This document shows positions 2,954 to 63,126 of a stretch of 64,000 nt of DNA, in pieces (the stretch's first letter is position 1; each line of letters starts with the position of its first letter). The position numbers were made by a program, and so were the translations under genes. This DNA comes from Candidatus Tumulicola sp. (GTDB lineage Bacteria > Vulcanimicrobiota > Vulcanimicrobiia > Vulcanimicrobiales > Vulcanimicrobiaceae), in NCBI GenBank assembly GCA_036490475.1, contig DASXDT010000002.1:1-64000 (forward strand), written 5' to 3'. The notes below the pieces were generated by a model, which was not told the DNA's origin, searched no databases, and was given only the letters and a program-made list of their open reading frames with translations.

Positions 2954-2980
2954 TCCGAAGTTCTCGAGTCCCAGAACCGC

Positions 2981-3055: not shown

Positions 3056-3060
3056 TTTGA

Positions 3061-3092: not shown

Positions 3093-3115
3093 AATTCGGA
3101 TAACGGAGCGCGGCG

Positions 3116-4108
3116 CTAGAACGTCCACACGCCGTGCGGCTTTGAAATCAAGGTCTTGGAACCGGCGAGCGCAGTCTTCGGAGCGGCATTACCGGATGCG
3201 CTCGCGGCGTAACTGGTGATGGTGCTCGACAACGCATTCCCCGTGAATATCGTTCCGCCCGTTCCGAGCGCTACGCCGGACGGGCCGTCCAACTTCGTTT
3301 TGGTTCCGCCGATCGTACGCAGCGGTTTGGCATCGTTATTGGCCGTAGACTTGAATTCGAGGAGGCTGTCGCTGCCGTAGCTTGCGACGTAGATGTTTCC
3401 GCTCGTGTCGAATGTCACGCCGCCCGGCTGATCCAGCGTGGTCGCGGGACCGCTGATCATGGCAATCGGTGCAGCGTTGTTCTTCGCGCCGGCGGCGTAA
3501 ACGGTGAGGGCATTGGATTCGACGTTTCCGACGACGAGTTGATCGGAAGTGTTTAGCGCTAATCCCGACGGCTCCAACAACTCGGTCAACCCTCCGCTCA
3601 ACGTTCGCGATGGTTTCACGTTTCCGGTTGCGCCGGCAGCAAAAACTCCGATCGAATTCGTGTTGGAATTTGCGACGTAGATATCCCCTTTCGAGTCGAC
3701 CCCGACGCCGACTGGGTTGCTCAGCATCGTTTTGTGTCCGAAAATGTTTTGTATGGGCTTTTGATTTCCGCTTGCGCCCGCAGCATACACTTCAATCGAG
3801 TTGTTTCCGAAAGAGGTCACATAGATTTTTCCAGCAGAATCGGTGTAGACGGCGGTAGGCTCGTTCAACTGTGTTGCGGATCCGACGATCGTTGCGGAAG
3901 GTGCTACGTTGCCGTTTGCCGTTTGAGCGAACGACAGGACCGAGTTGTTATCCGTATCCGCGATGAGTAGCGTACCGGTTTTGGCCGCGGGTGCCGGCGC
4001 CGAGCGGTCAGGCACGCTCAGAACGGCCGAGGCCGCCCCGTTCGAACTGCAGCCGGAAGCGAACGCCACGAGAAGAACGGCGGTGGAGGCGACGGGCGCT
4101 AAGCGCAT
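3116..4108 (-). CDS. Beta-propeller (NHL-like) lipoprotein
   Basis: The start at MRLAPVAST is preceded by AAGGAAAGG. A signal peptide leads to the lipobox FASGC (Cys about 20), so the protein is probably lipid-anchored. After a Pro/Ala linker come about six repeats of roughly 45 residues with the pattern 'GxIYVaxxxxNsI.VfaaGAsGN..P', e.g. GDIYVANSNTNSIGVFAAGA. This is the NHL/SMP-30-like propeller blade pattern. Function is unknown; such proteins often act in binding or as surface-exposed scaffolds. A longer start 10 codons upstream is possible but would misplace the signal peptide. Confidence 0.8.
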   Translation of the reverse strand: MRLAPVASTAVLLVAFASGCSSNGAASAVLSVPDRSAPAPAAKTGTLLIADTDNNSVLSFAQTANGNVAPSATIVGSATQLNEPTAVYTDSAGKIYVTSFGNNSIEVYAAGASGNQKPIQNIFGHKTMLSNPVGVGVDSKGDIYVANSNTNSIGVFAAGATGNVKPSRTLSGGLTELLEPSGLALNTSDQLVVGNVESNALTVYAAGAKNNAAPIAMISGPATTLDQPGGVTFDTSGNIYVASYGSDSLLEFKSTANNDAKPLRTIGGTKTKLDGPSGVALGTGGTIFTGNALSSTITSYAASASGNAAPKTALAGSKTLISKPHGVWTF

Positions 4109-4201
4109 GGCAAAGCCTTTCCTTGCGAAGAGGAACACCCAATGCGGACGCTTCGTCCCACCAGGGGCGGCCCCTTCCGGGAAACGCTCCGGCGAGGGCC
4201 G

Positions 4202-6259
4202 TTATGTTTTCAGATAACGAGCGAACCAGTCCGAGAGCAGATGCATGCGCTCGACGCGATGGATCGGCGATCCGGTTCGAGAGAGATCGTGTGTCTCGTT
4301 CGGAACGTCGACGTACGTTATCGTACGACCGAGAATCTTCATCGCCGTGAAGAACTGCAGGGTTTGATCGATCGGCGTGCGCGTGTCGTTATCGGAGTGC
4401 AGGATCAACAACGGCGTCTGAGCGTTCGCGACGTACGTTAACGGCGAGAATTTGGCATAGCTCGTGCTGGCCGGATCCCATGCGGGCCCCATCGAGTACT
4501 GGCCACCGGCCAGGCCGCCTTTGCCGGCGAAATCGGCGCCGAGGTTTTCGCTTTGCAAGAAGCTTACAACGCGCTCGGCGGCTGCGGCTTTATAACGATT
4601 CGTATGCGTGATCACCCATAGCGTCGCGTAGCCGCCGTACGAACCTCCGGTGACACCGAGCCGGTTCGGATCGACCTCAGGCCGTTTCACGGCCGCATCC
4701 ATGACCGACTGCGTGTCTTGGAACATTGCGTCGCCATAGTCGCTTTCTAGCGCCTCGGTAAAGGCGTAGCCGTGACCGGTGCTGCCCGCCGGATCGCAAA
4801 ACACGATGTTGTACCCGAGCCCCGCATAGTACTGAAACTCGAGGAAAAACGTGTCACCGAATTGCGTCTCGGGACCGCCGTGGATGTTCAGTAATGTCGG
4901 GTGCGGACCGCTCCCGCCGATCGCCGGCATAAACCACGCCTGCACCGTGCGGCCGGACGTGCTCTGCACGGAAAACTCTTGCGGGGTCGCGAGCGTGGCG
5001 TGTGCCAGCCACGCAGCGTTGACGTTCGTCACCTGCCGCGGCGTGCCGCCGCTCATACTCGAAATCCACACGTCGGCGGGATGCGTGAAATCGCTGTATA
5101 GGTACGCGACGGTCTTGCCGTCGAGCGTGGTGCTGCACGACCACGCTTCGCCGCGCGGCGGCGTTACGTTGCTGAACGTTCCGGTCTTGGTGTCGAGCGT
5201 GCGGATATTGGAGTAGCCGGGTCCGTCCACGTTCAGTACAAAGTTGCCGTCGGGAAGCGGCGCGCCGCACAAGCCTCCGCCTTCTTTCATATCAGCCAGA
5301 AGGCTATCGCCCCAACCGGTCGTGTTCTTTGCAACCGCCACGCGTTGGTTGCCGCTGGAATCGGAGATCACGAGCTCGGCCTGCTCGGCGTTGTCCTGAA
5401 CGCCGCCGCGCAGCCATGCTAGTTGGCCGGTACTCAGATAGCTTAGCCCGTTGTTGGACTCTTGCGACGAAGCGATCTTTTGCGGCGTGCCGCCGGCGGA
5501 TGAAACAATGTAGACATCTCCGGCGCCGCCGTCGACCGACTCGCGCTGCAGCGAGTTGAACGCGATCGTGCGATCGTCGGGCGACCACCCGACGATGCCT
5601 TCGCCCCAGCGTCCGGTTGTCAACTGCTTCGGATTGGAACCGTCGGCGTTGACGATCCAAATGTGCGGATGATCGCGATAGACGAATCCTGCTCCATTGC
5701 CTTCGAAGAACAGCTGATCGATCTGCTGGATATCGCTCTTCTTCTCGTCCGCGGTCGGCGTGAAGCCCGCTTTAGCAAAGTCGACATGCGCGTTGGGCGC
5801 CTCGTCCTGATCGTTAACCGACAGCGCGATCCGCCGGCCATCGTGCGACACCGTAGGACCCGATACGCCCTTGGCGATGTTGGTCAAACGGACAATTTTC
5901 TTGGTCGCCAGCGTATACCGGTAGAGCTGCGGCTTTTGCTTGGGCATGGTACGCACGAAGACGAACGTCGCGCCATCCGGCATCCACGCAAAATCGCCGT
6001 CGCCGGTACGCCCAGTAACGCTGGCCATCGTGCGGCCGGTCGCAACGTTCACCAAATCGATGGTGCGGTCGTAACGATTCTTCGGACCGTTGGAACGCGA
6101 CGTTTGCGTCAATACGTAGGCGCCGTCGGGCGACAGCGCCGCCGAATCGATAAGCGTCAGGTGAAACAGATCTTCCGGAATGACCGGAGCGGCCGACGCG
6201 GGACCCGCGAGGGCCACCGAAAAGAGCAAGCCGGCTACAGCAACGAGCGGATACTTCAT
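4202..6259 (-). CDS. Secreted prolyl oligopeptidase-family (S9) peptidase
   Basis: The start MKYPLVAVAGLLFSVALAG gives a clean signal peptide cut after PASA. An N-terminal propeller of WD40-like beta repeats (SPDGAYVL, MPDGATFVF, SHDGRRIALS, SPDDRTIAF) is followed by the alpha/beta-hydrolase domain. The triad reads Ser540 in GGSYGG, Asp625 in HSDNDTRTPID and His657 in NETHDL. It should cleave short peptides, C-terminal to Pro or acyl-amino-acid bonds, in the periplasm. A TTG start five codons upstream would add NAGR-type residues ahead of the signal and is less likely. Usual length for S9C proteins. Confidence 0.9.
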   Translation of the reverse strand: MKYPLVAVAGLLFSVALAGPASAAPVIPEDLFHLTLIDSAALSPDGAYVLTQTSRSNGPKNRYDRTIDLVNVATGRTMASVTGRTGDGDFAWMPDGATFVFVRTMPKQKPQLYRYTLATKKIVRLTNIAKGVSGPTVSHDGRRIALSVNDQDEAPNAHVDFAKAGFTPTADEKKSDIQQIDQLFFEGNGAGFVYRDHPHIWIVNADGSNPKQLTTGRWGEGIVGWSPDDRTIAFNSLQRESVDGGAGDVYIVSSAGGTPQKIASSQESNNGLSYLSTGQLAWLRGGVQDNAEQAELVISDSSGNQRVAVAKNTTGWGDSLLADMKEGGGLCGAPLPDGNFVLNVDGPGYSNIRTLDTKTGTFSNVTPPRGEAWSCSTTLDGKTVAYLYSDFTHPADVWISSMSGGTPRQVTNVNAAWLAHATLATPQEFSVQSTSGRTVQAWFMPAIGGSGPHPTLLNIHGGPETQFGDTFFLEFQYYAGLGYNIVFCDPAGSTGHGYAFTEALESDYGDAMFQDTQSVMDAAVKRPEVDPNRLGVTGGSYGGYATLWVITHTNRYKAAAAERVVSFLQSENLGADFAGKGGLAGGQYSMGPAWDPASTSYAKFSPLTYVANAQTPLLILHSDNDTRTPIDQTLQFFTAMKILGRTITYVDVPNETHDLSRTGSPIHRVERMHLLSDWFARYLKT

Positions 6260-6334
6260 ACGGCCAGCGTTCAATCGACGCTTCGTTGCGCCCCTTCCAC
6301 GGTTTGCCGGGCGCGCCTCAAAAACTCATCAAAG

Positions 6335-6370
6335 AAAAAAGCCGCGCGATCTTTCGATCGCACGGCCTTT
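6335..6370 (-). terminator. Rho-independent terminator after the phasin gene
   Basis: On the minus strand AAAGGCCGTGCGATC-GAAA-GATCGCGCGGC is followed by a run of T. It closes the pha cluster. Confidence 0.85.
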
Positions 6371-6390
6371 CCGTTCGAGGTTGGTGAGGA

Positions 6391-6753
6391 CTACTTGCCG
6401 ACGGGCTTGGCGGCCGGGGCCGTCATCGTGTTGCCGTTGGCAACCGTGTTCGTGGCCTGGCTGAAGCTGCTCTCGGCCTGCTTCTGCACATCGACGAACA
6501 TCTGGGCGACCTTCAGCGTGTAGGCCTTGCGGAGCTCGAGCATCTGCGATGCGAAGCCGAACGACATCTCGACGAACTGGAACGGGGTCGGAACGTTCTC
6601 AAAGGTCGGGATCGTGCCGGGCTTAACGGCGAACTCGGTGCTCAGGGCGCGAAACTTGGTCATCGTCTCGATGTTCGCGTCTTGGCTCTGTTTGAGCGCC
6701 TCGAGGCCCTCTTGCTGAAACTTGGTGAAGTAGTCGGTAACGTTGATGGTCAT
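6391..6753 (-). CDS. Phasin-like PHA granule protein
   Basis: A 120-residue, mostly helical protein with the phasin-type pattern 'YFTKFQQEGLEALKQSQDAN', followed by a helix with FASQMLELRKAYTLKVAQMF and a low-complexity Ala/Thr tail. Phasins coat polyhydroxyalkanoate granules. The position directly downstream of phaC and its regulator supports this. No signal peptide. Separated from the XRE gene by about 80 bp and followed by a strong terminator. Confidence 0.8.
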   Translation of the reverse strand: MTINVTDYFTKFQQEGLEALKQSQDANIETMTKFRALSTEFAVKPGTIPTFENVPTPFQFVEMSFGFASQMLELRKAYTLKVAQMFVDVQKQAESSFSQATNTVANGNTMTAPAAKPVGK

Positions 6754-6833
6754 TGTGTATCCCCTTCTCTTATCCCACTAATGCTTGGTTTGCGTCTCTC
6801 TGTGCTAAGTCTACCAAGCGATGAGCGAGGTTG

Positions 6834-7238
6834 TCAAGGACCTATGCCGAGAAAACTTCGGTAAATTCTGATGATCGTATCCTTCTGATCGACAGTCAGA
6901 CGGGGATCGAGGCGGATCGCGGCTTCGACGTCGCGGGCGTCGCCCTCAGCGGGCGGGGTATCGTCGAGCAGCCCAGCCTGAACGTACATCGTCTCGGCCG
7001 AGAGGTGGAGAGCCCCGGCGATCTGCTTGAGGACGTCGGCCGACGGCTTGTACAATCCACGTTCGACCTGGCTGAGATAGGGGTTCGAAATCTTCGCGAT
7101 TTCAGCCAACTGCCGCATGGACAGGTTGGCCAGCTCGCGCTGGGCACGAATGAACGTTCCCAGCCCGTTCCACCCTGGTGCCTGCTCGTTCGCCGGGCCG
7201 CCGGTCTCCGATTTGGGGCGTTCCGACTCGTCGCTCAC
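6834..7238 (-). CDS. XRE-family transcriptional regulator of the PHA cluster
   Basis: A 134-residue protein with an HTH_3 domain at about residues 25-85: FIRAQRELANLSMRQLAEIA, then SNPYLSQVERGLYKPS. The GTG start overlaps the phaC stop by four bases (GTGA), so it is translationally coupled to the synthase gene. A short C-terminal helix (TVDQKDTIIRIYRSF) may serve dimerisation. By analogy with PhaR-type regulators it may control the phasin or the pha genes. The family assignment is solid; the target is inferred. Confidence 0.85.
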   Translation of the reverse strand: MSDESERPKSETGGPANEQAPGWNGLGTFIRAQRELANLSMRQLAEIAKISNPYLSQVERGLYKPSADVLKQIAGALHLSAETMYVQAGLLDDTPPAEGDARDVEAAIRLDPRLTVDQKDTIIRIYRSFLGIGP

Positions 7239-8965
7239 GATGTTGCCGCCTTCGCGACGCCAAACGGTTCTCCGATTTCGTTACGGACGTATTTGCCAGG
7301 CGCAGCTTCGCCGGTAGGCAGCGCATAGGGAGCGACCTCCGGTCCGGCCCTCTCGCCCGACCAAACCGCCCAATCTTCCCACCAGCTGCCGGCGTGACGA
7401 TCGGCGGTCGCCAGCCACTCATCGGCCGACTCGCCGCGGACGGCTTGCGGCTTCACGTAGTACATGCTCTTCTTGCCGCCGGGCGGGTTGACGATGCCGG
7501 CGATGTGACCGGCATTGGTCAACACATACTTCGACGGTCCGCCGACGTGCTGCGTCGTCAGATAGGTCGCGTGCCACGGAGCGATATGGTCGTTCTCCGC
7601 ACCCAGCACGTACAACGGCGTTTCGATCTTCCCGAGGTCGATCGGCGTGCCGTCGATTGTGAACGCGCCGGGACGAACGATCGCGTTATGCAGATAGCAC
7701 GAACGCAAATACTGCGAATGCATCTCGACCGGCATGCGCGTCGAATCGCCGTTCCACGCCAAAATGTCGAACGCTGGAGGCCGCTTGCCCTTGTACCAGC
7801 TGTTGATGACGTAGCTCCAGATAAGATCTTGCGATCGCATCCAATCGAACGTCTTGGCCATCTCGGCCGAATCGAGATATCCGCGCTTGCGCATGCGCTG
7901 CTCGAGTCGATCGATGGTCGCCTCATCAGTAAATATCCCCAGATCTCCCGGGATGCTGAAATCGATGAGCGTGTTGGTGACGGTCGCACTCTTGACGCGG
8001 TCGCCCTGGCCTTTCGCGGCCAAATACGCTAAACCGATGAGCGCTAGCGTGCCCCCCAAGCAGAGCGCACTCACATTGACCTGCTTGCTGCCGGTGATTT
8101 CTTGCACCGCATCGATCGCAGCGAGAAATCCCAAGCGCAAATAGTCGTCCATCTTGTAATGAGACATCGACGCATCGGGATTGCGATAGCTGATCGCAAA
8201 CACCTGATGGCCGTGGCGCACGGCCCACTCGACGAACGACCGCCCCGGCGAAAGGTCCATGATGTAGTACTTATTGATCCACGGCGGGCTGAACAGCATG
8301 GGAACCGCGTGAACGTTCGGCGTCTGCGGCTCGTACGCGATCAATTCGATGAGATCGTTGCGCATCACGACGCGACCCGGAGTAGCGGCGATATTCTTAC
8401 CGACTTCAAAGCCGGCGGCGTCGACTTGGCGTGGATAACCGCCGTTATCTCGCAAGTCGTCCATAAAGTTTTGCATGCCTTGCAACAGGCTCGCGCCGTT
8501 CGTATCCACGGCTTCTTTGATAACGCCCGGATTCAACCACGGAACGTTGCTCGGCGACGCAGCGTCCAGCATGAGCTGCATCGCGAATCGCGCCTTGCGA
8601 CGCGTCGCTTCGGAAACTCGAGCGCCATCGATCAGCGCCATCGCCGCTTGCGAACGGATACGAAACTCTTCGACCACGCCGGCTAACATCGGATTGGAAC
8701 GCCATTCCGCGTCGGAAAAGCGCTTGTCGGCGGGGTCGAGAACGACCGGCATGATCGGTTCCTGACCGCTGAAGCGACGCAGCATGTTCAAGCCGACGTT
8801 TTGCTCGGCTAAGGCAAATCCCGAAAGCCATGCGCTCAGGCGCATCGGATCGGAAAGCGCGTCGTTCATGACGTCGCGCAGCGCATCGCCCATCGACGCC
8901 GGGTCCACCCCGGTCATTTCGATTCCGTAACCTAGATCGTCGGCCGCAATCATCACATGTACCAT
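7235..8965 (-). CDS. phaC: Class I-type poly(3-hydroxyalkanoate) synthase
   Basis: A 576-residue protein that polymerises (R)-3-hydroxyacyl-CoA into PHA on granules. An N-terminal PhaC_N region (residues 60-240) is followed by an alpha/beta-hydrolase core. The lipase-like box is SALCLGGT with nucleophile Cys302, Asp459 in GAENDH and His487 in NAGHIAG. Length fits class I enzymes without a separate PhaE/PhaR subunit. The first four codons overlap the upstream reductase gene; an ATG five codons in (MIAADD) is an equally good start. It is flanked by two acetoacetyl-CoA reductase-like genes and a phasin, which completes the pathway from 3-ketoacyl-CoA to polymer. Confidence 0.93.
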   Translation of the reverse strand: MVHVMIAADDLGYGIEMTGVDPASMGDALRDVMNDALSDPMRLSAWLSGFALAEQNVGLNMLRRFSGQEPIMPVVLDPADKRFSDAEWRSNPMLAGVVEEFRIRSQAAMALIDGARVSEATRRKARFAMQLMLDAASPSNVPWLNPGVIKEAVDTNGASLLQGMQNFMDDLRDNGGYPRQVDAAGFEVGKNIAATPGRVVMRNDLIELIAYEPQTPNVHAVPMLFSPPWINKYYIMDLSPGRSFVEWAVRHGHQVFAISYRNPDASMSHYKMDDYLRLGFLAAIDAVQEITGSKQVNVSALCLGGTLALIGLAYLAAKGQGDRVKSATVTNTLIDFSIPGDLGIFTDEATIDRLEQRMRKRGYLDSAEMAKTFDWMRSQDLIWSYVINSWYKGKRPPAFDILAWNGDSTRMPVEMHSQYLRSCYLHNAIVRPGAFTIDGTPIDLGKIETPLYVLGAENDHIAPWHATYLTTQHVGGPSKYVLTNAGHIAGIVNPPGGKKSMYYVKPQAVRGESADEWLATADRHAGSWWEDWAVWSGERAGPEVAPYALPTGEAAPGKYVRNEIGEPFGVAKAATS

Positions 8966-32095: not shown

Positions 32096-32196
32096 ACGTT
32101 ATTAATAACCTCCTCGCGCCGTCCGAGTTACACCTCCCGACGGCCGACCCCGCTCTCGAGCAAGCGGCACGTCCGCCCGAAGCGAATCTTCGGTGG

Positions 32197-33153
32197 ATGA
32201 ATCGCTCGACGTTTTTGGGTGCGGTGGCATCCGCTTCAGCCGCGACGGCCGTGCCCAGCCAGGCCCAGGCGGCATCTGACGTCCCGATCTCGTTGCAGAC
32301 GGCGACCGGAACGCTGTACGGAACGCTAACGTTTCCGCCTCGAACTCCGGCACCGGTCGTTTTGATCGTGGCCGGCTCGGGTCCGACCGACCGCGACGGC
32401 AATTCTAGCCTGGGCGTTCGCAGCGATACTTATAAGCTGCTCGCGCAAGCGCTGGAAGCGCTCGGAATCGCGACGGTGCGTTACGACAAACGCGGGGTCG
32501 GCGCCAGTGCCACCGCCATGAAGTCCGAAAGCGACCTGCGGTTCGATACATACGTTCAAGACGCAGCCGCATGGATCGCTCTTCTGCACGGCGATGCGCG
32601 ATTTTCGTCGGTCACGGTAGCCGGCCACAGCGAGGGTTCTCTGCTCGGAGTGCTGGCGTTGCAAAATGCAAGCGCCAATGGATTTGCCAGCCTCGAGGGC
32701 GCCGGGAGGCCCGCTCCGGCAGTGCTACGCGAACAATTCGCAGCTCAGCTGCCGGCAAAACTCTACGCGCAAGCCGACGCCGCTATCACGCAATTGCAGC
32801 AAGGCCATCTGGTAACGGACGCGCCGCCTGAATTAGCGGCACTGCTGCGACCATCGGTGCAACCGTACTTGATTTCGTGGTTCAAATACGATCCGGCGGC
32901 GGAGATCGCAAAGCTTCGCGTTCCCATCGCCATCGTTCAAGGAACGGCCGACGTCCAAGTCGGCATGGTGGATGCGCGAGCTCTTGCGCGCGGAGCTCCT
33001 CACGCGAAATTCGTCGTCGTCGACGGAATGAATCACGTGCTCAAGTACGCACCCGATACTTCGACGCAAGCGGCCATTCTGCACGGGTACGACGATCCGT
33101 CGTTGCCGATCGAACCGGAAGTAGTAGAGGCCATCCAAGCACTGAGTTTGTAG
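32197..33153 (+). CDS. Secreted alpha/beta-hydrolase
   Basis: 318 residues. A Tat- or Sec-like N-terminus (MNRSTFLGAVASASAATAVP) cleaves near AQA. The hydrolase core has VAGSGPTDRDGN, VRYDKRGVGAS, nucleophile Ser in AGHSEGSLLG, Asp in IVQGTADVQV and His in GMNHVLKYA. It belongs to the YqkD/BEM46-like serine hydrolases. Substrate unknown. Divergent from the BI-1 gene. Confidence 0.85.
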   Translation: MNRSTFLGAVASASAATAVPSQAQAASDVPISLQTATGTLYGTLTFPPRTPAPVVLIVAGSGPTDRDGNSSLGVRSDTYKLLAQALEALGIATVRYDKRGVGASATAMKSESDLRFDTYVQDAAAWIALLHGDARFSSVTVAGHSEGSLLGVLALQNASANGFASLEGAGRPAPAVLREQFAAQLPAKLYAQADAAITQLQQGHLVTDAPPELAALLRPSVQPYLISWFKYDPAAEIAKLRVPIAIVQGTADVQVGMVDARALARGAPHAKFVVVDGMNHVLKYAPDTSTQAAILHGYDDPSLPIEPEVVEAIQALSL

Positions 33154-33328
33154 ATGCTACGGCCCTACGCACGATGATATGCTATGTGGTGATGGCTACG
33201 GGCGGATTCTGAAAGTTGAAACAGCCGAAACGCACTTGAAGCTTTTGTAGTAAGCTTAGCTGGTTTGTCCATGGCGAAACTGGCTCACTCCTAGATTCTT
33301 GATCGGCCCAATTACGCTGGGAAACCCG
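33154..33328. other. Left junction of the low-GC defence-like segment
   Basis: No gene is visible. Base composition falls from GC-rich coding to AT-richer sequence here. No tRNA or clear repeat marks the boundary. Confidence 0.35.
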
Positions 33329-34966
33329 TTACGCAGGCAGAAGGCCTCGTAGTACCGGCAACGCTTCCATCTCGCGAGGCTCGAACTTCTCCAGTCCGCC
33401 GAAATACGTTCGACCGCGCCCCACAAAAGATGCACGGGCCCTATTCAGATGTTCCGTCAGCCGCTGCAGTTCATCTTTATGCAATGGCAGCTTCGGCCAA
33501 AGGCCGTGGACAACGTTGACCGTTACCAGCCCATCGGGATTGAGGGCGAAAACAGGGGCCTGACGGGCCATGTAACTTGCTACGATAGGGGGCGCCGAGG
33601 GCCTAACGGCCCACCATGCTGGTCGGCCACGTGTGACGTACCGCTCCGACACGGGGGCTTTGCCCGCTAAAGAATGCTCGCCCTGACATAGGTATTCGTC
33701 GAGCGCTTTATCAGCTTTCCGATTAATGTCTGTCGGCGGGTCGAATAGCACAAGGCGCTGCCCGTTGTCTCGGATTACGCCTGCGCACTGAATGATTTCT
33801 TTCGCCGACGTAATCGCCGGCTTGCACCATTTTTCAATGCCTAGGGCTCGGGCTCTTTCTAATGTCATGATGAAGAAGCTATTCGCTCCGGTTACCTGCC
33901 CACGGGAAACGCGGACGATCGAACCGAGCGGCACGGCATCCTCGCTCAAATGAATTCGCTGGTTTAACAACGGAGACCAGCGCTCCGCGTCAAGTTCACT
34001 CCTACTGACGCGATTCCCACTGCGGCCCAGTCCCTTGGAGACCTTAACATTTTTGGAAACGGAAAAGGTAAGCCGTTTGTGCTCGACTCCCACTTCGAAA
34101 TATGCGATTGCGGCCGTGGTCATCGCATCCTTAAACGCGATCGCTTGGGGGGCGATGAGATGTACTCCGGCGCAACCCAGTTGATTCAGCATTAGCTTAC
34201 GCACGACACTCCCGTAGTTGACATCCAGCCACTCCGCGCTCGTCACAAAGCACCCAACGTCCCCATCGGTCACGAGTGACGCCGTCTGCAAAAAGAAGTG
34301 GGTATACAGTCCCGCCAAGCCAGACATATGGAGCCCTAATCGCGTGGCGAGCCTTATCGCTCGTTCCTTCGCATGGGTAGACAAGCCATGATGCCTAACA
34401 TAAGGTGGGTTACCGATAAATCCGGTGCGGCCGTCGATGCGATCAAGGCGTAGCCTCATATAGTCGGAGTGCTGCACAATTGCGCTCTTAGCCTTAATCA
34501 CGTGAAGCATTGCACGAGTCATCAGAGTAGCTACAGCATCAAGGTCGACGGCAACTGTCTTGAGCGAGCGATTAGACAAAAGGATTGCTTGAGTAAAACG
34601 TCCGCTCCCCGCCCCTGGATCGACAATTCGAGTCGGCTTGCGGTCAAGCAGCCACTTTATCATCGGCTGTATTAACGTCGACGGAGTGTAGAAGCTGCCC
34701 ACTTGCCGTCGTCGGACCGGCGACCGCAACGCGCAGAATGCTTCTCCTAGAGGGTCGGCGCCGCCGAGTATCTGCTCGCGGAGCCCGCGGAGCAGCCGGG
34801 AAGATGTTCGAGGGACATCCTGGACTCGTTTCAGTAATTTCGCTTCCGTCATGGATAACGGGCCGCCCGCTAATGCGGCCCCAAGATCCAGAGTTGCTCG
34901 GATTAGCTGCTGTTCGCTTACGATCGATTCGGCGTGCGCAGTATCGCGAGCTGCCGATGATTTCAA
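33329..34966 (-). CDS. N6-adenine DNA methyltransferase (Eco57I/Type I-like)
   Basis: 545 residues. SAM-binding motif I is VDPGAGSGRFT (about 115-125) and the catalytic motif IV is GNPPYVRHH (NPPY at 186-189), as in gamma-class adenine methyltransferases. 'GSFYTP' just before motif I is typical of Type I/IIG M subunits. The C-terminal 200 residues could serve target recognition (e.g. RGQVTGANSFFIMT, NVVHGLWPKLPLH). TTG start after GGGAG. Last gene of the four-gene low-GC operon, 130 bp after the nuclease-like gene. It would modify host DNA to protect it from the neighbouring nuclease/ATPase. Confidence 0.85.
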   Translation of the reverse strand: MKSSAARDTAHAESIVSEQQLIRATLDLGAALAGGPLSMTEAKLLKRVQDVPRTSSRLLRGLREQILGGADPLGEAFCALRSPVRRRQVGSFYTPSTLIQPMIKWLLDRKPTRIVDPGAGSGRFTQAILLSNRSLKTVAVDLDAVATLMTRAMLHVIKAKSAIVQHSDYMRLRLDRIDGRTGFIGNPPYVRHHGLSTHAKERAIRLATRLGLHMSGLAGLYTHFFLQTASLVTDGDVGCFVTSAEWLDVNYGSVVRKLMLNQLGCAGVHLIAPQAIAFKDAMTTAAIAYFEVGVEHKRLTFSVSKNVKVSKGLGRSGNRVSRSELDAERWSPLLNQRIHLSEDAVPLGSIVRVSRGQVTGANSFFIMTLERARALGIEKWCKPAITSAKEIIQCAGVIRDNGQRLVLFDPPTDINRKADKALDEYLCQGEHSLAGKAPVSERYVTRGRPAWWAVRPSAPPIVASYMARQAPVFALNPDGLVTVNVVHGLWPKLPLHKDELQRLTEHLNRARASFVGRGRTYFGGLEKFEPREMEALPVLRGLLPA

Positions 34967-35096
34967 CGGCTCGCTCCCGCATGATCCGCAGAAAACATGC
35001 TCTCGGAATACTGGGGTATCAGAATATCCATGTCATCTGCCATATACGAGATCCGAAGCCTGACACAAATGTTGTGCGACAAATTCCTACGAAAAG

Positions 35097-35978
35097 TCAA
35101 GGACTCGGAAGTCCCGGTATGAGCGCTAGGCGGGGAAGATTTACAGAGGCTTGCTCCCAGCGGCCCGACACGGAGTCCTTCGGCAGCCGATCCCCAAGCT
35201 CCAACATCGTGCACCACCCGAGTATAGTTCCAGCTGCACTCTGAGAATCTTCGACCTCGCATACGACCAAAAACCAGTCCCGAACTGTAGCCCCAAACTC
35301 GGCCTCACCACGCGAAAGAAAAAACGTGATTTCATTCGTCATCGTCTTCGCCAACGTTGACTTCACCTCTATCAGCCGGCTGGGACCGTTTACTCGCGGC
35401 GCAGAGATGTCGTAACCTAGCTGATCAGAAAGAGCGCTGACTCGCCGGACCTCACGAGCTAGCTCTATGTAGCCTAGCGATTCAAGCTCGACACGAGCTT
35501 GATAAAGCACAACCCTTTCGCCAATGTCACCAATGAGACGCCGCTGACGATCATCGAAGCGACGACCCAAAGCGACTAGTAACTCCTCCCGCCTAGACGC
35601 ATCTAGCCCCAATGACTCGGCAAACTCCTCATTAGGTGGCCGTAGCTCCTCTGCGTTCTTTTCTACTTGAGAAGCGAGGGTAAATATAGCTACCCTAGCA
35701 TCCTCCAAGGTACCGTCAAGCAAGTCTGAAAGAAACCGACTAGGGAAGAGTACTTGCTCTGTTTCAGTCACTAAGCCGCAGTCAATTAACAGGCGTTCTC
35801 CCACACGCAAATCTGACGGAGAGAACGAACCTCCAAGCGCGTGGTTCCAATACGACGCCATTGCATCAATCCGCCTTAACCCGTCCTTATCTAAGACAGA
35901 CGCAGCGTGTAGTGCTGCGTCGATGACGTACGACGTGACCCGGCCTCTCGCACCTATCGGCGGCTTCTCTTCGCTCAA
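35097..35978 (-). CDS. DUF3883/PD-(D/E)XK nuclease-like protein
   Basis: About 293 residues from a TTG start that overlaps the SNF2 stop (TTGA); the frame is open to 36032 with a GTG alternative. The C-terminal half shows a restriction-nuclease pattern: GDIGERVVLYQARVELESLG, then DQLGYDISAP, then SRLIEVKST. These are the Glu, Asp and E-x-K of the PD-(D/E)XK/Mrr-like fold as found in DUF3883 proteins. The N-terminal half looks like a winged-helix region (ASYWNHALGGSFSPSDLRV). Proposed role: the DNA-cleaving or DNA-sensing arm of the operon. Codon use (TTA, CTA, AGA) is unlike the flanking genes. Confidence 0.7.
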   Translation of the reverse strand: MSEEKPPIGARGRVTSYVIDAALHAASVLDKDGLRRIDAMASYWNHALGGSFSPSDLRVGERLLIDCGLVTETEQVLFPSRFLSDLLDGTLEDARVAIFTLASQVEKNAEELRPPNEEFAESLGLDASRREELLVALGRRFDDRQRRLIGDIGERVVLYQARVELESLGYIELAREVRRVSALSDQLGYDISAPRVNGPSRLIEVKSTLAKTMTNEITFFLSRGEAEFGATVRDWFLVVCEVEDSQSAAGTILGWCTMLELGDRLPKDSVSGRWEQASVNLPRLALIPGLPSP

Positions 35979-37849
35979 GACTCTATCCCGAGATGAACAA
36001 ACATCTCGTCCAGATCGCTGGTCTCGACCCACTGACCGTAATCATCGGGCTCGGGCAACGCCATAACGGTGAGGTTGGGGTCTGATAGCATTCGAGACAG
36101 ACGTTCTGCCTTAAGACGTACTCTCTGATCAATTATTTCGTCGACGGTCCCTACGCTCACCAGAGATATGATTCTCGTTTCTGCTTCGATTGGCAGACCG
36201 AGTCTATGTATGCGATCGATCGATTGAAGGTATTGACCAGCATTGAATGTGCGGTCTAGGTACACTGCGTCATGACACTCATGATGCAAGCTGACGCCTT
36301 CCGACATAGCGGCGGGATTGGCCAGCAACACCCAACAATTCGGATCATACCGGAAACGCCTTAATTCGCTCTGCCGGGTTACGAAGTTAGTTTCTCGGGG
36401 GGAAGAGGGGATGGCGCCATAGATCAGCGCCGGCTCGTGGGGAGCTAGCACTCGATGAGCAAGCTCCTCAAGATTTGCCACAAAGTTAGACCATACTAAG
36501 GTCTTGCGCCCTGCGGCTGCGTTGGTGTCCACTATAGATGCTAGCTTCTGAAATTTGCTAGGCATCTCGTACTCATGGTAGCGCATGATCAAATCGACCA
36601 AAGACGAATCGTCCGGGACCGGCGCAGGTGGCCAAACCGTTGATGGAACAGCACCGTTCAGCGATTTAGCAAGCAACGCGGGATCCGTCGCGGCTTCCAT
36701 AAGGTACATTACGACGTCGGCCATTCGTGACAACTGAGCACGAACTTGCAAGGTAAGATTTAACTGTCCTACCATGCGAGAACGGACGGCATTGTAGATC
36801 ATTGACTGTAGCGGGCCCATATCGACGTATTCAACCCGAATCAGGGGAGGCACCAGACCTAACTCATCCTTCTTCGTACGGGCAAACAACGGCGCTATTC
36901 GGTCCGAAACTTCCTCCATGACATCATCCGGTGGATTCGCCTGTAACGCCGCAGACGGTAGGATACGCGTCGCTTGCTGCGGCCATAGGAAATCAAACAA
37001 AGCGACGAAGTCACTCGGGTGCTGCGGAGCGGGAGTCCCGGTTAAGATATCCCTGCGAGCCGCGAGATAGGCAAGATCAAGGCACGCGCTCCCCCATTCG
37101 CCGCTCCGCCCCCGCTTAATTCTGTGAGCCTCGTCCAATAAAACATGACAGGGCTTCGCCATAACCCAGGCTGAAACGTCTCTGAGGCGTGCCGCCAGCC
37201 GTTGGTAGTTAGTCAGCAAGATCTCGCAGGCTTCAGGAATTCGCTCGTCCAGCCAGGTCACGCAAGGAACGGGCTCCATCCACCGCTCCGCTTCTGTGAG
37301 CCACGAATCAAACGCTGAAAGCGGCGCTACAACTAATAGCCGCGCGACCCGTCCCCGCAGACGTTCGGCTTCGTAACAACCTAGTGCCACCGCCGTCTTC
37401 CCGGCACCGGGTACAGAAAAGTTGGCATAATGCGACATAGCCAAGACTCTGGCCAAATCGCGACGCTGGAAACGCCGCAGACCACCGAGTTGGAAGCGAT
37501 TATCAGGCCTCCCAAATGTCATTTCGTCGATATCGTATTCTTGGCTCGACGATTGGCTCAGAGCGCACGTAATCTCTCGTTCTTCGTCCTCTTCTTTTTG
37601 CAGCATTGCAAGGATCGAGGAATCGAAGGACGCATCGCAGGAGTAAGCGATTAGAGTCTGCGCAATCCAATTTCGACGCGCAAGGAAGCTCTCAATGGGA
37701 ATCACTAGCTGACCGTTGAGCACTCGTAGGTTACCCGGTGCCAGGTTGCGCTCAAGGGTCCGCCAAGCACTCTCCGCGACGTCCCCATCGCGCGCGATAA
37801 AAACGCGGGGCGGCGAGCCTGCGACAGTTAACGACAATGACCCGGGCAC
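35975..37849 (-). CDS. SNF2-family helicase/translocase
   Basis: 624 residues. Motif I (Walker A) is FSVPGAGKTAVAL with Lys151, motif II DEAH at 239-242 (LLDEAHRIKRG), motif III LTGTPAP and motif VI QYLQSIDRIHRLG. Between the two RecA lobes are VWSNFVANLEEL and ANPAAMSEGVSLH, typical of SNF2 proteins. About 120 residues precede the ATPase and may bind partners or DNA. GTG start 4 bp after the ParB-like gene. SNF2 motors in bacterial defence loci translocate on DNA (e.g. DISARM, Dpd). Confidence 0.9.
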   Translation of the reverse strand: MPGSLSLTVAGSPPRVFIARDGDVAESAWRTLERNLAPGNLRVLNGQLVIPIESFLARRNWIAQTLIAYSCDASFDSSILAMLQKEEDEEREITCALSQSSSQEYDIDEMTFGRPDNRFQLGGLRRFQRRDLARVLAMSHYANFSVPGAGKTAVALGCYEAERLRGRVARLLVVAPLSAFDSWLTEAERWMEPVPCVTWLDERIPEACEILLTNYQRLAARLRDVSAWVMAKPCHVLLDEAHRIKRGRSGEWGSACLDLAYLAARRDILTGTPAPQHPSDFVALFDFLWPQQATRILPSAALQANPPDDVMEEVSDRIAPLFARTKKDELGLVPPLIRVEYVDMGPLQSMIYNAVRSRMVGQLNLTLQVRAQLSRMADVVMYLMEAATDPALLAKSLNGAVPSTVWPPAPVPDDSSLVDLIMRYHEYEMPSKFQKLASIVDTNAAAGRKTLVWSNFVANLEELAHRVLAPHEPALIYGAIPSSPRETNFVTRQSELRRFRYDPNCWVLLANPAAMSEGVSLHHECHDAVYLDRTFNAGQYLQSIDRIHRLGLPIEAETRIISLVSVGTVDEIIDQRVRLKAERLSRMLSDPNLTVMALPEPDDYGQWVETSDLDEMFVHLGIES

Positions 37850-37853
37850 AGCT

Positions 37854-39269
37854 TTAATTATCTAGCAGTACGCCAGCTCTCACGAGAGCGACTTCCACTT
37901 CGCGGAAGCGTTTCTTTAGCTTTTTAAATGCCATTTCCATAAGTTTCTGCCTCCTGGTGTCAAAAGCCGGATCCTTCATCGCCACGGGCAGAGCATTAGA
38001 ACATTTCACTAATTCATTCGCGGCCTTTTTGAGAAGATCTACCGGCGCGCTGAGTTTATCCTCGACGCGGTCAGCTCGTTTCTTCTCGTCGATTCCCACA
38101 ATCATAGAAGTCTTCAGGGCATCCCGGACATTGTCGGCGCTGAGCGAGACTTTTTTGTCGCCAGCGACAATCGCCACATCCTTAGTCTTCTGATTAACAA
38201 CGTCAATTAAGCGGCGTATATCCGGCCGCGCCGGTTCCGCTGGCTTTGAGCGCTTCATCAGCCTAGCCGCACCCGGGTTGGAATTGGGAAGTTGGTCCGG
38301 ACTCGTTGCGGTCAGGAAGTCGGCAAAACGGCCGACGACCTCATCCTCTTCAAGATGAGGAACGAGATAGTCGCCAACGAATGCGTCATCAACTCTTCGA
38401 AGCTGGTGCACCGAAGTTATACCGAGCATTCCCGACAACAGTATAGTTTCTAGATATCGCTCCGCGGAGGCTGGGTCATCCTTCATCTTGGCATCGTATT
38501 CGCGCAATGTTTGTTTCAGCTGCTCGTACGCCAGATCGTCAAAGAAGCGCAAGGGTAATCGTTGAGCCGGTATGTTCTGCATCCTACGGATCAGGTCGAG
38601 CATGCGCAACCGCAATTCTACTTCCGATGCACCCTTTTTCGCATTATCGAGATGAATTCTCATCTCCGCCGCGATCTGTTCAGGAGAAAGCTTAAACTCT
38701 TCCTTCAGCTCCTCCACGAATAGCAGCTCATTAGTGAACGAATATTCACCCTTTAGCTGCTTTTGCATTTGGAGCCGAAGCTCGAGTAAATTTAGTTCTT
38801 GCGGTTTCACGGTTTGTGGCAATACAGCTACGCGAATGTACTCTTTGCTAGGGTCAGCGAATTCTCGGATAGCTACCGCACGCGTGTTACCATTGATAAG
38901 CACGCCGTCGTGCGTAATTATTCCCGGATCAGTTTGACCGTCTTGGGTTAGCGATTGCTGCAGCATTGCGAACGAGGCTTCGCCTCGGTCCTGGCGGATA
39001 TGAAAAGCAATAATTGCTTGAGCGCCTTCACTATCGGGTTCATGGCTAAGTTCGCCCCACTGCGCATCGTCCTGAAGCTGAGCGCGAACGCGATGAGACT
39101 TGTGGTTTAGGAGAAGTTCATTAGCGCCGATCGAGATAACTGGACAGCTCATAGGATCCCCAAACCCGGCGATGCGCAAAACTTCACCCTTTTTAGCCGA
39201 AGACGTGTTCTGCGCGTCCACCAGGATCCGGATACGACTCATTCGCTCATTACGGCTTATTTGGGCCAC
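37854..39269 (-). CDS. ParB-like domain protein, first gene of the defence-like operon
   Basis: 471 residues from a GTG preceded by GGAGGGAG; other starts are possible at 39290 (TTG) and 39242 (ATG). The N-terminal third contains the ParB/sulfiredoxin-type core DGVLINGNTRAVAIREF (about 121-137) after SLTQDGQTDPGIITHD. The rest is helical and charged, with EELKEEFKLSPEQIAAEMRI resembling an HTH. The C-terminus is rich in Lys/Arg (KLMEMAFKKLKKRFREVE). Related ParB/DndB-like domains occur in DNA-modification systems (Dnd, Dpd). It may sense DNA or use CTP/ATP. Function inferred only from context. Confidence 0.7.
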   Translation of the reverse strand: MAQISRNERMSRIRILVDAQNTSSAKKGEVLRIAGFGDPMSCPVISIGANELLLNHKSHRVRAQLQDDAQWGELSHEPDSEGAQAIIAFHIRQDRGEASFAMLQQSLTQDGQTDPGIITHDGVLINGNTRAVAIREFADPSKEYIRVAVLPQTVKPQELNLLELRLQMQKQLKGEYSFTNELLFVEELKEEFKLSPEQIAAEMRIHLDNAKKGASEVELRLRMLDLIRRMQNIPAQRLPLRFFDDLAYEQLKQTLREYDAKMKDDPASAERYLETILLSGMLGITSVHQLRRVDDAFVGDYLVPHLEEDEVVGRFADFLTATSPDQLPNSNPGAARLMKRSKPAEPARPDIRRLIDVVNQKTKDVAIVAGDKKVSLSADNVRDALKTSMIVGIDEKKRADRVEDKLSAPVDLLKKAANELVKCSNALPVAMKDPAFDTRRQKLMEMAFKKLKKRFREVEVALVRAGVLLDN

Positions 39270-39770
39270 GCGAGCTCCCTCCAAAGTCAATTGGCGGCAT
39301 CACTTAAAAAGAGAAATATCGAGGATTTCTACGAAAACCATCGTGTTCAAACCTGCTTCAGGTCCGACTTTCAATGCGAATCGAGCAAAATAAAAACTTG
39401 CGTGGGTCGGCCTGCTGCTTGCTTCATCGGACCGTGATTGAGAATGCAGCGGTCGGAAGCCTAAATACGCAGTCCCGGGGTTAGGCTCGCCTGGGTGTCG
39501 CCGTCATTATGCGACTCTGAGCACCCTCATATTTCGTAAGAACCTTCGAATCTTAGATCTTCAAATGATCGTTCTTTACTTCCGGAGTCGGGGCCACTTA
39601 CGGCTCGAGAAGGACGGGCAGACTTGATCAAGGTCGCCGCACTTATCCATAAATCGCAGTCGATTTGCGATTCGCCGTTTGGCTAGACGTGAGTCTTCAA
39701 TAAGCTCAAACTCATTATGTTCCTTTCCTGCTTTCCCAAAGCGCCAATTCGCGCGACACCGCCAAATGCG
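39270..39770. other. 500-bp gap between the defence-like operon and purD
   Basis: AT-richer than the flanks, with no convincing gene. A 64-codon open stretch follows the purD stop in the same frame (ends 39576) but lacks an upstream start codon. The promoter of the ParB-like gene should lie near its 39.3-kb end, but no strong -35/-10 pair is evident. Confidence 0.4.
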
Positions 39771-60844: not shown

Positions 60845-61669
60845 ATGGCAGTTCACACTCCACCTAGACCGAGCGGGCCCAGCGTAATTGTCCAGCAGAC
60901 AGCAGCGCACTCAGCACCTCCTCATTCTGCGGCCGTGCCACTATATGGGGGGATCGTGGGGCTGTTTCTCTTGGCTCTCGTGGCGTACTTGCTGCGGCGT
61001 CTCCCGTCGGCGCTTCCCCAAACGGTGACGGCCGTATTATTAGCCGCCTGGGTTTTGGGCGGCTCAATAATCGCATGGCGAATAATTTTTGCTATCGCGC
61101 TTGTCATTCTAATATGTTGGATTCTGGCTGCAGAGTACGAGCGCAAAAAAGCCGACAAAACGGAGACTGCGGAACGCTCCTCAGAGGGTGAACGGCGACT
61201 AAATGCAGAGGCTGATGCCCGAACCATCGCGAGCGAGCGACGGATAAAGGAGCAACTTGTTTTGATTACGGGGGAGGCCGCTAAGGGTAAGCCCGATCTG
61301 GTGGTAGCGGTCATCCGTTTTACGGATGAGTTATGGAATCTGATTTATAAGCGCCACGCCACTGTCGACGGAGCGATAAGGGAAATTGGGAAGATTCCCA
61401 CTCTTGATAATCTGACTCCAGACGAGGACCGCATTGTTAGAAGAATTGAGCGCGATGCCGATTTGGAGACGCTCTACAAGTTCTCCCAATCTTTCGTGCC
61501 TGCGGCGCAGAACTTGGCCGCAAAAATGCGGGACTTTGGTGTCGTTGATGCTCGCTTGGAGCCGCTATTAACAGCAAGTCCGCAAGAGTGGGTTAACATC
61601 GAAGATGTCAGCGTTGTTTTTGAGGACATGGCAAAGCGCTTGATTCAGCCGATGGGAGCGATTGATTGA
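60845..61669 (+). CDS. Membrane protein of unknown function (accessory segment)
   Basis: 274 residues. After a Pro/Ser N-terminus come three hydrophobic stretches (YGGIVGLFLLALVAYLL, VTAVLLAAWVLGGSIIAW, IIFAIALVILICWIL). A charged coiled-coil-like segment (YERKKADKTETAERSSEGER) and a helical cytoplasmic domain follow. GAAGGA ribosome-binding site. Lower GC and different codon use from ribBA. No family recognised. Confidence 0.65.
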   Translation: MAVHTPPRPSGPSVIVQQTAAHSAPPHSAAVPLYGGIVGLFLLALVAYLLRRLPSALPQTVTAVLLAAWVLGGSIIAWRIIFAIALVILICWILAAEYERKKADKTETAERSSEGERRLNAEADARTIASERRIKEQLVLITGEAAKGKPDLVVAVIRFTDELWNLIYKRHATVDGAIREIGKIPTLDNLTPDEDRIVRRIERDADLETLYKFSQSFVPAAQNLAAKMRDFGVVDARLEPLLTASPQEWVNIEDVSVVFEDMAKRLIQPMGAID

Positions 61670-61671
61670 CT

Positions 61672-61899
61672 TTACGCGCTCTTGCTCTGCCAGAACCTCG
61701 CTTCGATACCAAGTTCGTAGAACGATTGGACCAGCACACACAGGTTGTGGCAGAGGACTTTGCAGAGCATCTCGTTCACCACGGCGACCGGAATCTTGGA
61801 GCGGATACGGCTTCCAAACTTGGATTTAATAATGTGGAACGTCGTTTCGACGTCGCTTCGGTGCTGGTAGTGGCGCAAGAAATCCTCGCGGCGGTACAT
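61672..61899 (-). pseudogene. C-terminal fragment of a DDE (IS4-type) transposase
   Basis: 75 residues with HYQHRSDVETTFHIIKSKFG and NEMLCKVLCHNLCVLVQSFY, the highly conserved end of IS4/IS1182-like transposases including the DDE Glu. No catalytic Asp domains precede it. A decayed IS copy inside the accessory segment. Confidence 0.8.
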
Positions 61900-62038
61900 G
61901 TACTAGTAGGGGCATATCAGGATACGCGCCTAGCTTTGGATTATACGCCCAAAAGTCTCTTTACCAGGCAGAGTCTTGATCGCGACGGACTGCCTACTTT
62001 CGCGGTTGAAGGAGCTTTTACCAGGGAGGCTTCTCGAT

Positions 62039-62839
62039 ATGCTTGAGGCTTGGGCGGCGGCCTATTACCGAATCGGGGATTCGTTTGAGTTTGTAGCGGA
62101 TGGCTGCAGGGCCCACATGGCTCAGTTTGGCGAGAGCCATCCGTTGCCGGACGATCTGCGAAGAAAGCTAGTCGACGATCTGGCGTATGCCTGCCACTGG
62201 GTTGGCGGGATGGAGATGATGACTCCGTACGGATTGATGGAAAATCTGAAGTGGAGGGCCGAGCGTGTGGGGGACCTTGCCTTGGATTGTGGCGAGACTT
62301 ATCACACGCTGAATTCTATTGGCAACGTACTACGGATGGAGCTAAATGAGCGGTGGCTTCTTTATGTGCCCACCAACTTGGTGGATTTGCACCTTTCGCC
62401 GTTAGATAACTGGGGCGAAGTACCGGATAAATTTCCTTCAGCTGCCCCTGAGGTAATTGCGGCATCCGAGTGTTGCGCCCTTCATCAGCCGACGGCGGCG
62501 GTCTTTCACTTGATGCGAACACTTGAACGCGGCTTGCGAGCTCTCGCCTCCGATCTCGGGGTTTCAACCGTTAAGCAAGACCTCGGAACCTGGGGCAATC
62601 TCCTCGGTGAAATACAGGCGCAGTCAAATACGCGAATTGCGGCGACTCCCAAGGGGCCCGCGCGGAAACTTGAAGAGGAATACTACGCGGAGATTCTTGC
62701 CGAGTTCAAGCATTTCAAAGATGCTTGGCGCGATCGCGTTTCCCACTCTAACCGCACCTACGATATTGACGAAGCCAAGAGCGTCCTGTCTCATGTTCGG
62801 GCCTTCATGGTTCGACTCGCTTCGAGGCTTACGGAGTGA
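62039..62839 (+). CDS. HEPN-like protein of unknown function
   Basis: 266 residues; start placed at the ATG after GGGAGG (an upstream TTG at 61976 is possible). Helical throughout. The C-terminal part LAEFKHFKDAWRDRVSHSNR followed by DIDEAKSVLSHVRAFM matches the HEPN pattern (Arg...His) found in ribonuclease toxins and phage-defence proteins. Tentative. Neighbours are a membrane protein and a transposase remnant. Confidence 0.6.
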   Translation: MLEAWAAAYYRIGDSFEFVADGCRAHMAQFGESHPLPDDLRRKLVDDLAYACHWVGGMEMMTPYGLMENLKWRAERVGDLALDCGETYHTLNSIGNVLRMELNERWLLYVPTNLVDLHLSPLDNWGEVPDKFPSAAPEVIAASECCALHQPTAAVFHLMRTLERGLRALASDLGVSTVKQDLGTWGNLLGEIQAQSNTRIAATPKGPARKLEEEYYAEILAEFKHFKDAWRDRVSHSNRTYDIDEAKSVLSHVRAFMVRLASRLTE

Positions 62840-62906
62840 CGGACACGCCATATTTTATGGGCAGAACGAAAATTTATTGGGCAAACGGATGATTCTTAGC
62901 AAAGCC

Positions 62907-62916
62907 GTGTCGCACG
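62907..62916. repeat. Right copy of the 10-bp direct repeat bracketing the accessory segment
   Basis: Identical to 60719-60728 (GTGTCGCACG), in the same orientation. Confidence 0.35.
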
Positions 62917-62976
62917 ATTGATTCAACTGGCGTACTGTTGCGGTACCTACAATACCCACCGCATAGGAGACGCACC

Positions 62977-63126
62977 ATGGCTTTCGATCGAGATATCCCA
63001 AATGACGCTCTTGGGTATGTCGAGCCCGACGAAGAGGACGAAATGCCCGGCGACGACGATTCCGATCGACCGCGTAATACTGGCGACGGAGCGGCGGTCG
63101 ACCCGGCCGATGAGGCCGCGATCTAG
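62977..63126 (+). CDS. Small acidic protein of unknown function (49 aa)
   Basis: AGGAGA precedes the ATG by 7 bases. The product, starting MAFDRDIPNDALGYVEPDEE, is strongly acidic (Asp/Glu-rich) and likely disordered. A possible -10 TACAAT lies at 62948-62953. Its stop overlaps the convergent alcohol dehydrogenase by four bases. No family recognised. Confidence 0.6.
   Translation: MAFDRDIPNDALGYVEPDEEDEMPGDDDSDRPRNTGDGAAVDPADEAAI

What the first reader, a model, noticed from the sequence alone, without database searches (positions are those of the whole stretch)
33329..39290. Four-gene low-GC operon resembling an undescribed restriction-modification-type defence system
Seen: ParB-like (DGVLINGNTR), SNF2 ATPase (GAGKT/DEAH), DUF3883/PD-(D/E)XK-like (GYDI...IEVKS) and NPPY adenine methyltransferase genes, all minus strand, 4 bp apart or overlapping in three cases. 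GC and codon use drop sharply against the flanking purine genes. Known: modification + SNF2 motor + nuclease is the logic of DISARM, Dpd and Type I/ISP restriction, but DISARM lacks the ParB-like gene and Dpd lacks the methyltransferase. Inferred: the methyltransferase marks self DNA, the SNF2 motor scans and the PD-(D/E)XK protein cuts, with the ParB-like protein as sensor or loader.
Basis: partly seen in the sequence, partly recalled or inferred. Interest (0 to 1): 0.78.

Follow-up and report, generated by a model that had tools for sequence, protein, structure and literature searches.

The report
Unnamed ParB-SNF2-nuclease restriction-modification cassette
Four horizontally acquired genes form a bacterial DNA-defence cassette whose core trio (a ParB-type clamp, a DNA motor and a DNA-cutting enzyme) recurs in several bacterial phyla beside many unrelated DNA-methylating enzymes, which suggests a common but apparently unnamed add-on of restriction-modification systems.

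Summary
The four genes are real, minus-strand, low-GC and absent at the empty purD-Bax1 site of a same-genus genome. They encode a ParB/KorB-fold protein, an intact SNF2 ATPase, a winged-helix plus PD-(D/E)XK (NOV_C) nuclease and a gamma-class N6-adenine methyltransferase of the XamI type. Only two of the three gene junctions are tight; the methyltransferase lies 130 bp away. In 80 homologous loci the trio ParB-SNF2-NOV is the conserved unit (ParB 75, NOV 49; usual overlap 4 bp; the proteins co-diverge). The methyltransferase is exchangeable: C5 type in most loci, a DUF1156-like type in a sister clade, Eco57I types here. A methyltransferase lies within 6.5 kb in 70 of 80 loci, and its class changes only 3 times on the SNF2 tree. 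The trio, or the ParB-SNF2 pair, is also appended to complete R-M systems (BglII-type II; type III). DISARM, Dpd and DUF499/Hma are rejected. I found no description of the set in PADLOC, NCBIfam or the papers searched. Anti-phage activity and mechanism remain inferred.

The parts
37854..39290 (-). ParB/Srx-fold protein (ParB-N plus helical/HTH region plus C-terminal coiled coil); likely start GTG at 39269
   Evidence: ORF; family HMM finds homologues next to SNF2 in 75 of 80 loci; AlphaFold2 pLDDT 90.8 matches KorB, Noc and ParB CTPases, Z about 10, rmsd 1.5 A over 90 residues to M. xanthus ParB; GxxR pocket motif GNTR retained
35975..37849 (-). SNF2-family ATPase/translocase, 624 aa, start GTG; GAGKT, DEAH, TGTP and QSIDRIHRLG motifs intact
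   Evidence: Pfam SNF2-rel_dom 1.3e-16 and Helicase_C 1e-6; 38-59% identity to the SNF2 genes of relatives
35097..36032 (-). NOV_C/DUF3883 protein: N-terminal winged helix plus C-terminal PD-(D/E)XK nuclease; likely start TTG at 35978 (293 aa)
   Evidence: Pfam NOV_C 9e-8; PADLOC candidate PDC-S36 9e-17; invariant E154, D190, E204, K206 in 44 homologues; fold Z about 10 to Hjc, NhoI, SPARDA nuclease and I-Ssp6803I
33329..34966 (-). gamma-class N6-adenine DNA methyltransferase of the XamI type (DPGAGSG, NPPY), start TTG
   Evidence: PADLOC MTase_II PDLC03222 389 bits; 40-48% identity to methyltransferases, several beside XamI endonucleases
39291..39770 (.). AT-richer upstream non-coding stretch (GC 0.50), probable promoter region of the operon
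   Evidence: Composition of 39270-39770; lies between purD and ParB; no promoter was mapped
32096..39770 (.). Insertion between purD and the Bax1-like gene; empty site in a same-genus genome (74-bp gap there)
   Evidence: L110, L115 empty; the insert also holds an alpha/beta hydrolase gene of host-like GC (32197-33153 +)

Best explanation
The locus is a horizontally acquired restriction-modification cassette made of two exchangeable halves. The modification half is a XamI-type N6-adenine methyltransferase (shown by homology); it probably methylates GTCGAC or a similar site on host DNA (inferred). The restriction half is a conserved trio. A ParB/KorB-fold protein probably binds nucleotide and clamps DNA (fold shown, activity inferred). 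An SNF2 ATPase moves along or remodels DNA (motifs shown, activity inferred). A winged-helix plus PD-(D/E)XK protein cuts it (fold and invariant catalytic residues shown, cutting inferred). The trio recurs with methyltransferases of at least four classes and with complete type II systems, and the ParB-SNF2 pair with a type III system. It therefore most likely acts as a sequence-independent effector that attacks DNA the associated R-M enzymes recognise as unmodified or have already engaged or broken. In this genome it stands in for the missing XamI endonuclease.
For: The trio is conserved in order and coupling (ParB in 75 and NOV in 49 of 80 SNF2 loci; median gaps -4 and -4 bp) and co-diverges (Spearman 0.83 and 0.78, permutation p 0.002). 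DNA methyltransferase genes lie within 6.5 kb in 70 of 80 loci, 55 of 60 with full flanks; their class follows the SNF2 and ParB trees (3 changes), and methyltransferase and SNF2 distances correlate within the DUF1156-like and C5 groups (0.85, 0.80). Complete R-M systems in the same operon: N4/N6 MTase + BglII endonuclease + trio (L116, L117, L011), Mod + Res + ParB + SNF2 on an E. faecium plasmid, C5 MTase + Vsr + type II endonuclease + trio. Nuclease catalytic residues invariant and nuclease fold; ParB CTPase fold. Lateral acquisition. Defence neighbours in relatives: GmrSD-N, HEPN, a Shedu-like DUF4263 protein.
Against: No phage or enzyme assay exists. In the window the methyltransferase is not tightly coupled (130 bp) and is closer to XamI-system methyltransferases of its phylum (46-48%) than to those of the other Eco57I-partner loci (26-31%), so its link to the trio could be recent or incidental. 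Many C5/Streptomyces loci lack NOV (24 of 48 C5 loci have it), so the nuclease is not universal. How the trio tells self from non-self is unknown. GTCGAC specificity rests on family homology only.
Confidence: 0.55

Rival explanations
1. The trio is a self-contained defence effector and the XamI-type methyltransferase beside it is an orphan left from a separate R-M system, giving no self-protection to the trio.
For: 130-bp gap; methyltransferase phylogeny discordant with SNF2; no XamI endonuclease found in the window or its genome; no methyltransferase detected in 10 of 80 loci, several of them on short contigs.
Against: All five loci of this SNF2 clade carry a gamma-class methyltransferase of this broad type, in different positions and orientations; in the sister clade the methyltransferase co-diverges with SNF2 (0.85); 70 of 80 loci have one.
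Confidence: 0.22
2. The methyltransferase is the specificity subunit of one complex, as in type I or III and BREX-like systems: it finds unmodified sites and recruits SNF2 and the nuclease.
For: Exchange of methyltransferases on a conserved motor/nuclease trio is what one expects if the methyltransferase sets the specificity; here no other endonuclease is present.
Against: The trio also accompanies C5, N4 and N6 enzymes of unrelated families and full type II systems with their own endonuclease, which makes one common protein-protein interface unlikely.
Confidence: 0.15
3. The trio serves R-M upkeep, for example clearing DNA-bound proteins or processing breaks the endonuclease makes in the host, rather than attacking invaders.
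For: Vsr repair genes in 30 of 48 C5 loci; SNF2 proteins remodel protein-DNA complexes (general knowledge); Ku genes beside the Rhizobium locus.
Against: A PD-(D/E)XK active site kept invariant across phyla; the trio also sits with methyltransferases lacking any recognised endonuclease (the window, L014).
Confidence: 0.06
4. It is a diverged DISARM, Dpd or DUF499/Hma (BREX-related) system.
For: SNF2 hits DrmD, DpdE and HmaA profiles weakly; motor + nuclease + methylase logic.
Against: Scores far below curated cut-offs (26 of 610; 22 of 500 bits); no DUF1998/MZB gene in the locus (the only one in the genome is on another contig); no DUF499 in the genome; the conserved ParB partner is foreign to these systems.
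Confidence: 0.02

Closest known systems
XamI-type type II R-M (methyltransferase + XamI endonuclease)
   Same: Methyltransferase is 40-48% identical over nearly full length to the enzymes of this type
   Different: XamI endonuclease is absent; ParB-SNF2-NOV stands beside the methyltransferase instead
R-M operons with SWI2/SNF2, DNA methylases and Vsr noted by Iyer, Abhiman and Aravind 2008 (PMC2292703); ParBc near R-M genes noted by Bellieny-Rabelo 2021 (PMC8011034)
   Same: SNF2-family motor in operons with cytosine methylase, Vsr and endonucleases; ParB-type domain near type II R-M
   Different: Those reports centre on MORC/paraMORC or two-component-like genes; the passages read do not describe a ParB-SNF2-NOV unit
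SNF2-DUF3883 fusions in R-M operons (Anantharaman 2013, PMC3710099)
   Same: DUF3883 called a novel REase domain, fused to SNF2 in R-M-linked operons
   Different: Separate proteins here, with a conserved ParB gene and no HEPN/DUF499 partner
DUF499-centred BREX-related systems / Hma (PMC12839542)
   Same: SNF2 helicase + N6-methyltransferase with R-M-like logic
   Different: No DUF499 ATPase; the SNF2 protein is short (624 aa)
DISARM and Dpd
   Same: SNF2 motor with modification and nuclease genes
   Different: Curated DrmD and DpdE cut-offs failed by a wide margin; no DrmB/DUF1998 in the locus
PADLOC candidate PDC-S36 and PD-T4-1
   Same: The NOV protein's nuclease domain matches both profiles (9e-17, 7e-10)
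   Different: Match covers about 100 residues only; these are profile names, not a description of the trio

Membership tests
XamI-type II R-M system | XamI-type methyltransferase | tested here: met
   PDLC03222 389 bits; 40-48% identity to methyltransferases of this type, several adjacent to XamI endonucleases
XamI-type II R-M system | Adjacent XamI endonuclease | tested here: not met
   tblastn of four XamI proteins finds none in the window at E <= 1e-4, but finds it in L230 and L232; Pfam RE_XamI absent from the genome, though that search had no positive control
DISARM | DrmD-type SNF2 and DrmB (DUF1998) in the locus | tested here: not met
   DrmD 26 bits against a cut-off of 610; only MZB/DUF1998 match of the genome is on contig C6
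Dpd | DpdE equivalog | tested here: not met
   21.7 bits against a cut-off of 500
DUF499-centred BREX-related / Hma | DUF499 AAA ATPase | tested here: not met
   No DUF499 in the genome; control search positive in Thermotoga
BREX | PglZ and BrxC | not tested
   No dedicated search; the four ORFs are accounted for by other families
Type I R-M | HsdR and HsdS subunits | tested here: not met
   No HsdR or HsdS match listed for any of the four proteins; all operon ORFs assigned otherwise
PD-(D/E)XK nucleases (NOV_C branch) | Fold and E...D...ExK residues | tested here: met
   nuclease activity not testable here
ParB/Srx superfamily | ParB-N fold | tested here: met
ParB/Srx superfamily: CTPase clamps | Full CTP-binding motifs and CTPase activity | tested here: inconclusive
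   GxxR kept; the ENxxR motif is replaced by LELxLQ in a low-scoring profile alignment; activity not testable
Plasmid/chromosome partition ParB | ParA partner in the operon | tested here: not met
   No ParA among the four window genes; the genome has its own separate ParB_N-family protein on contig C6

The most novel reading that the evidence does not exclude
ParB-SNF2-NOV is a widespread, unnamed effector module: a ParB-type (possibly CTP-driven) clamp and an SNF2 motor deliver a PD-(D/E)XK nuclease to invader DNA. It plugs into restriction-modification systems of almost any modification chemistry and type, as a modular second line of attack.
Probability: 0.35. Interest if true: 0.8.

Novelty: new variant of a known kind. 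Interest (0 to 1): 0.6.

Why it matters
If right, many R-M systems annotated as simple two-gene type II or III systems carry a conserved motor/clamp/nuclease trio that current defence annotation does not recognise. It would link ParB-type DNA clamps to restriction, and a set of easily expressed operons would make it directly testable what the trio adds to a known endonuclease such as a BglII-type enzyme.

Tried and rejected
Close-relative scan with the ParB protein found nothing in genome contigs; the SNF2 alignment did. Foldseek alone gave no confident PDB match for the NOV model; the second-look aligner did for the C-terminal domain. PDB profile searches found no relatives of NOV; for ParB only two M-protein coiled-coil chains at weak E-values. 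GTCGAC is not depleted in the window (56 against 41.6 expected), so there is no sign of site avoidance. The purD-Bax1 junction is not a defence hotspot: inserts there in relatives hold membrane-protein, phosphoesterase, transporter and protease genes. Viral contigs add only about six close relatives. A rate of methyltransferase genes around random genes was not measured; the 80 loci are the best-scoring of 331 and lean to Actinomycetota. Absence from the literature means absence from the open-access papers searched.

Full report
Observation. The four minus-strand genes exist: ParB-like 37854-39290 (likely start GTG 39269), SNF2 35975-37849, NOV_C/DUF3883 35097-36032 (likely start TTG 35978) and methyltransferase 33329-34966. 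Two junctions are tight (4 bp; overlap), the third is 130 bp, so the 'three cases' of the finding is wrong. The GC and GC3 drop is real.

Acquisition. In a same-genus genome purD and the Bax1-like gene are 74 bp apart with nothing between them (L110), and they are also adjacent in L115; the window has a 7.7-kb insert there. Only 3 of 149 genomes of the phylum, the window's own included, have a close SNF2 relative. The junction accepts other, non-defence inserts in relatives, so it is a permissive site rather than a defence hotspot.

The proteins. SNF2 is supported by Pfam (1.3e-16) with its motifs intact. NOV matches Pfam NOV_C; G150, E154, G188, D190, E204 and K206 are invariant in 44 homologues; the model (pLDDT 87.7) has a PadR-like winged helix and a C-terminal domain matching Hjc, NhoI, SPARDA nuclease and I-Ssp6803I at Z about 10. 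ParB is weak by sequence, but its model (pLDDT 90.8) matches KorB, Noc and ParB at Z about 10, and M. xanthus ParB over 90 residues at 1.5 A. The GxxR pocket motif is kept; the ENxxR motif appears replaced (a low-scoring alignment), so nucleotide use is an open question. The methyltransferase has motif I and NPPY in gamma order and belongs with the enzymes of XamI-type R-M systems. XamI recognising GTCGAC is my own knowledge of REBASE, not a tool result.

The conserved unit. A scan with the SNF2 alignment gave 331 relatives; the best 80 were studied. ParB lies near SNF2 in 75, NOV in 49 and a DNA methyltransferase within 6.5 kb in 70 (55 of 60 with full flanks). Gaps are typically -4 bp. SNF2 distances correlate with ParB (0.83) and NOV (0.78). 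So ParB-SNF2-NOV is one unit, although about half of the C5 loci, mainly Streptomyces, lack a recognised NOV.

The exchangeable partner. Methyltransferase classes: C5 in 49 loci, DUF1156-like in 18, Eco57I-like in 4 plus the window; one locus has both of the first two. On the SNF2 tree the Eco57I partners form one clade of five (support 98) from Chloroflexota, Acidobacteriota, Actinomycetota and the window; their sister group is the DUF1156-like clade; class changes 3 times, and the same on the ParB tree. Within the DUF1156-like and C5 groups, methyltransferase and SNF2 distances correlate (0.85, 0.80). Within the Eco57I clade the methyltransferases belong to at least three lineages (W; L014 with L016; L015 with L020) only 26-31% alike to the window's, discordant with the SNF2 tree. 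The window's enzyme is nearest to methyltransferases of its own phylum, two of which sit beside XamI endonucleases (L230, L232). No XamI gene is seen in the window.

Association with complete R-M systems. Two genomes of the host's phylum and a Paracoccus replicon have N4/N6 methyltransferase, BglII-family endonuclease, ParB, SNF2 and NOV in one operon. An E. faecium plasmid has Mod, type III Res, ParB and SNF2 close together head to tail (ParB confirmed by HMM). Many C5 loci have Vsr and an endonuclease-like gene just upstream of ParB. A streptococcal prophage carries the trio next to a C5 methyltransferase. Relatives also sit near GmrSD-N, HEPN and Shedu-like genes.

Mechanism. Shown: folds, intact motifs, gene linkage, co-divergence, lateral acquisition. 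Inferred: methylation of host DNA by the XamI-type enzyme; ParB clamps, SNF2 moves, NOV cuts; the trio acts on DNA that the R-M enzymes mark as foreign or have engaged. Because partners differ in chemistry and type, a trio that reads one particular mark, or binds one methyltransferase fold, is less likely than a partner-agnostic effector; this step is the weakest. The rival that the window's methyltransferase is an orphan is kept at 0.22.

Comparison. DISARM, Dpd and DUF499/Hma fail tested defining features. Prior reports noted SNF2 with MORC/R-M genes (PMC2292703), ParBc near R-M genes (PMC8011034), DUF3883 as an REase domain fused to SNF2 (PMC3710099) and DNase/NTPase activity of ParB domains in conflict systems (PMC5512222). 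I found no report of the ParB-SNF2-NOV unit in the papers searched, and neither PADLOC nor NCBIfam gave a model that covers the set.

Noticed in passing
L116, L117, L011: Operons N4/N6 methyltransferase - BglII-family endonuclease - ParB - SNF2 - NOV, two of them in the host's own phylum.
   Followed up: partly
L200 (E. faecium p1818-a) 1-7662: Type III Mod and Res head to tail with ParB and SNF2 genes, the last three overlapping.
   Followed up: partly
L019 5398-6627; L081 5489-6178: Two conserved families directly upstream of ParB (about 409 aa in 13 DUF1156-like loci; about 250 aa in 23 actinobacterial, mostly Streptomyces, loci) without a Pfam or PADLOC match: candidate unknown endonucleases.
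   Followed up: no
G000 contig C6 1494831-1500609: Same genome: Eco57I-type methylase in a 1319-codon open frame and a DUF1998/MZB domain in a 1883-codon frame within 6 kb; possibly a DISARM- or YprA-type defence locus.
   Followed up: no
window 32096-39770; L111, L112, L114: The purD-Bax1 junction holds different inserts in different genomes of the family; those in relatives are not defence genes.
   Followed up: yes
L012 (Streptococcus phage Javan191) 918-6613: Prophage carries ParB-SNF2-NOV with a C5 methyltransferase near one end of its genome record.
   Followed up: no
window 61001-63000: Second low-GC stretch (0.52-0.54) with reversed GC skew; content not examined.
   Followed up: no
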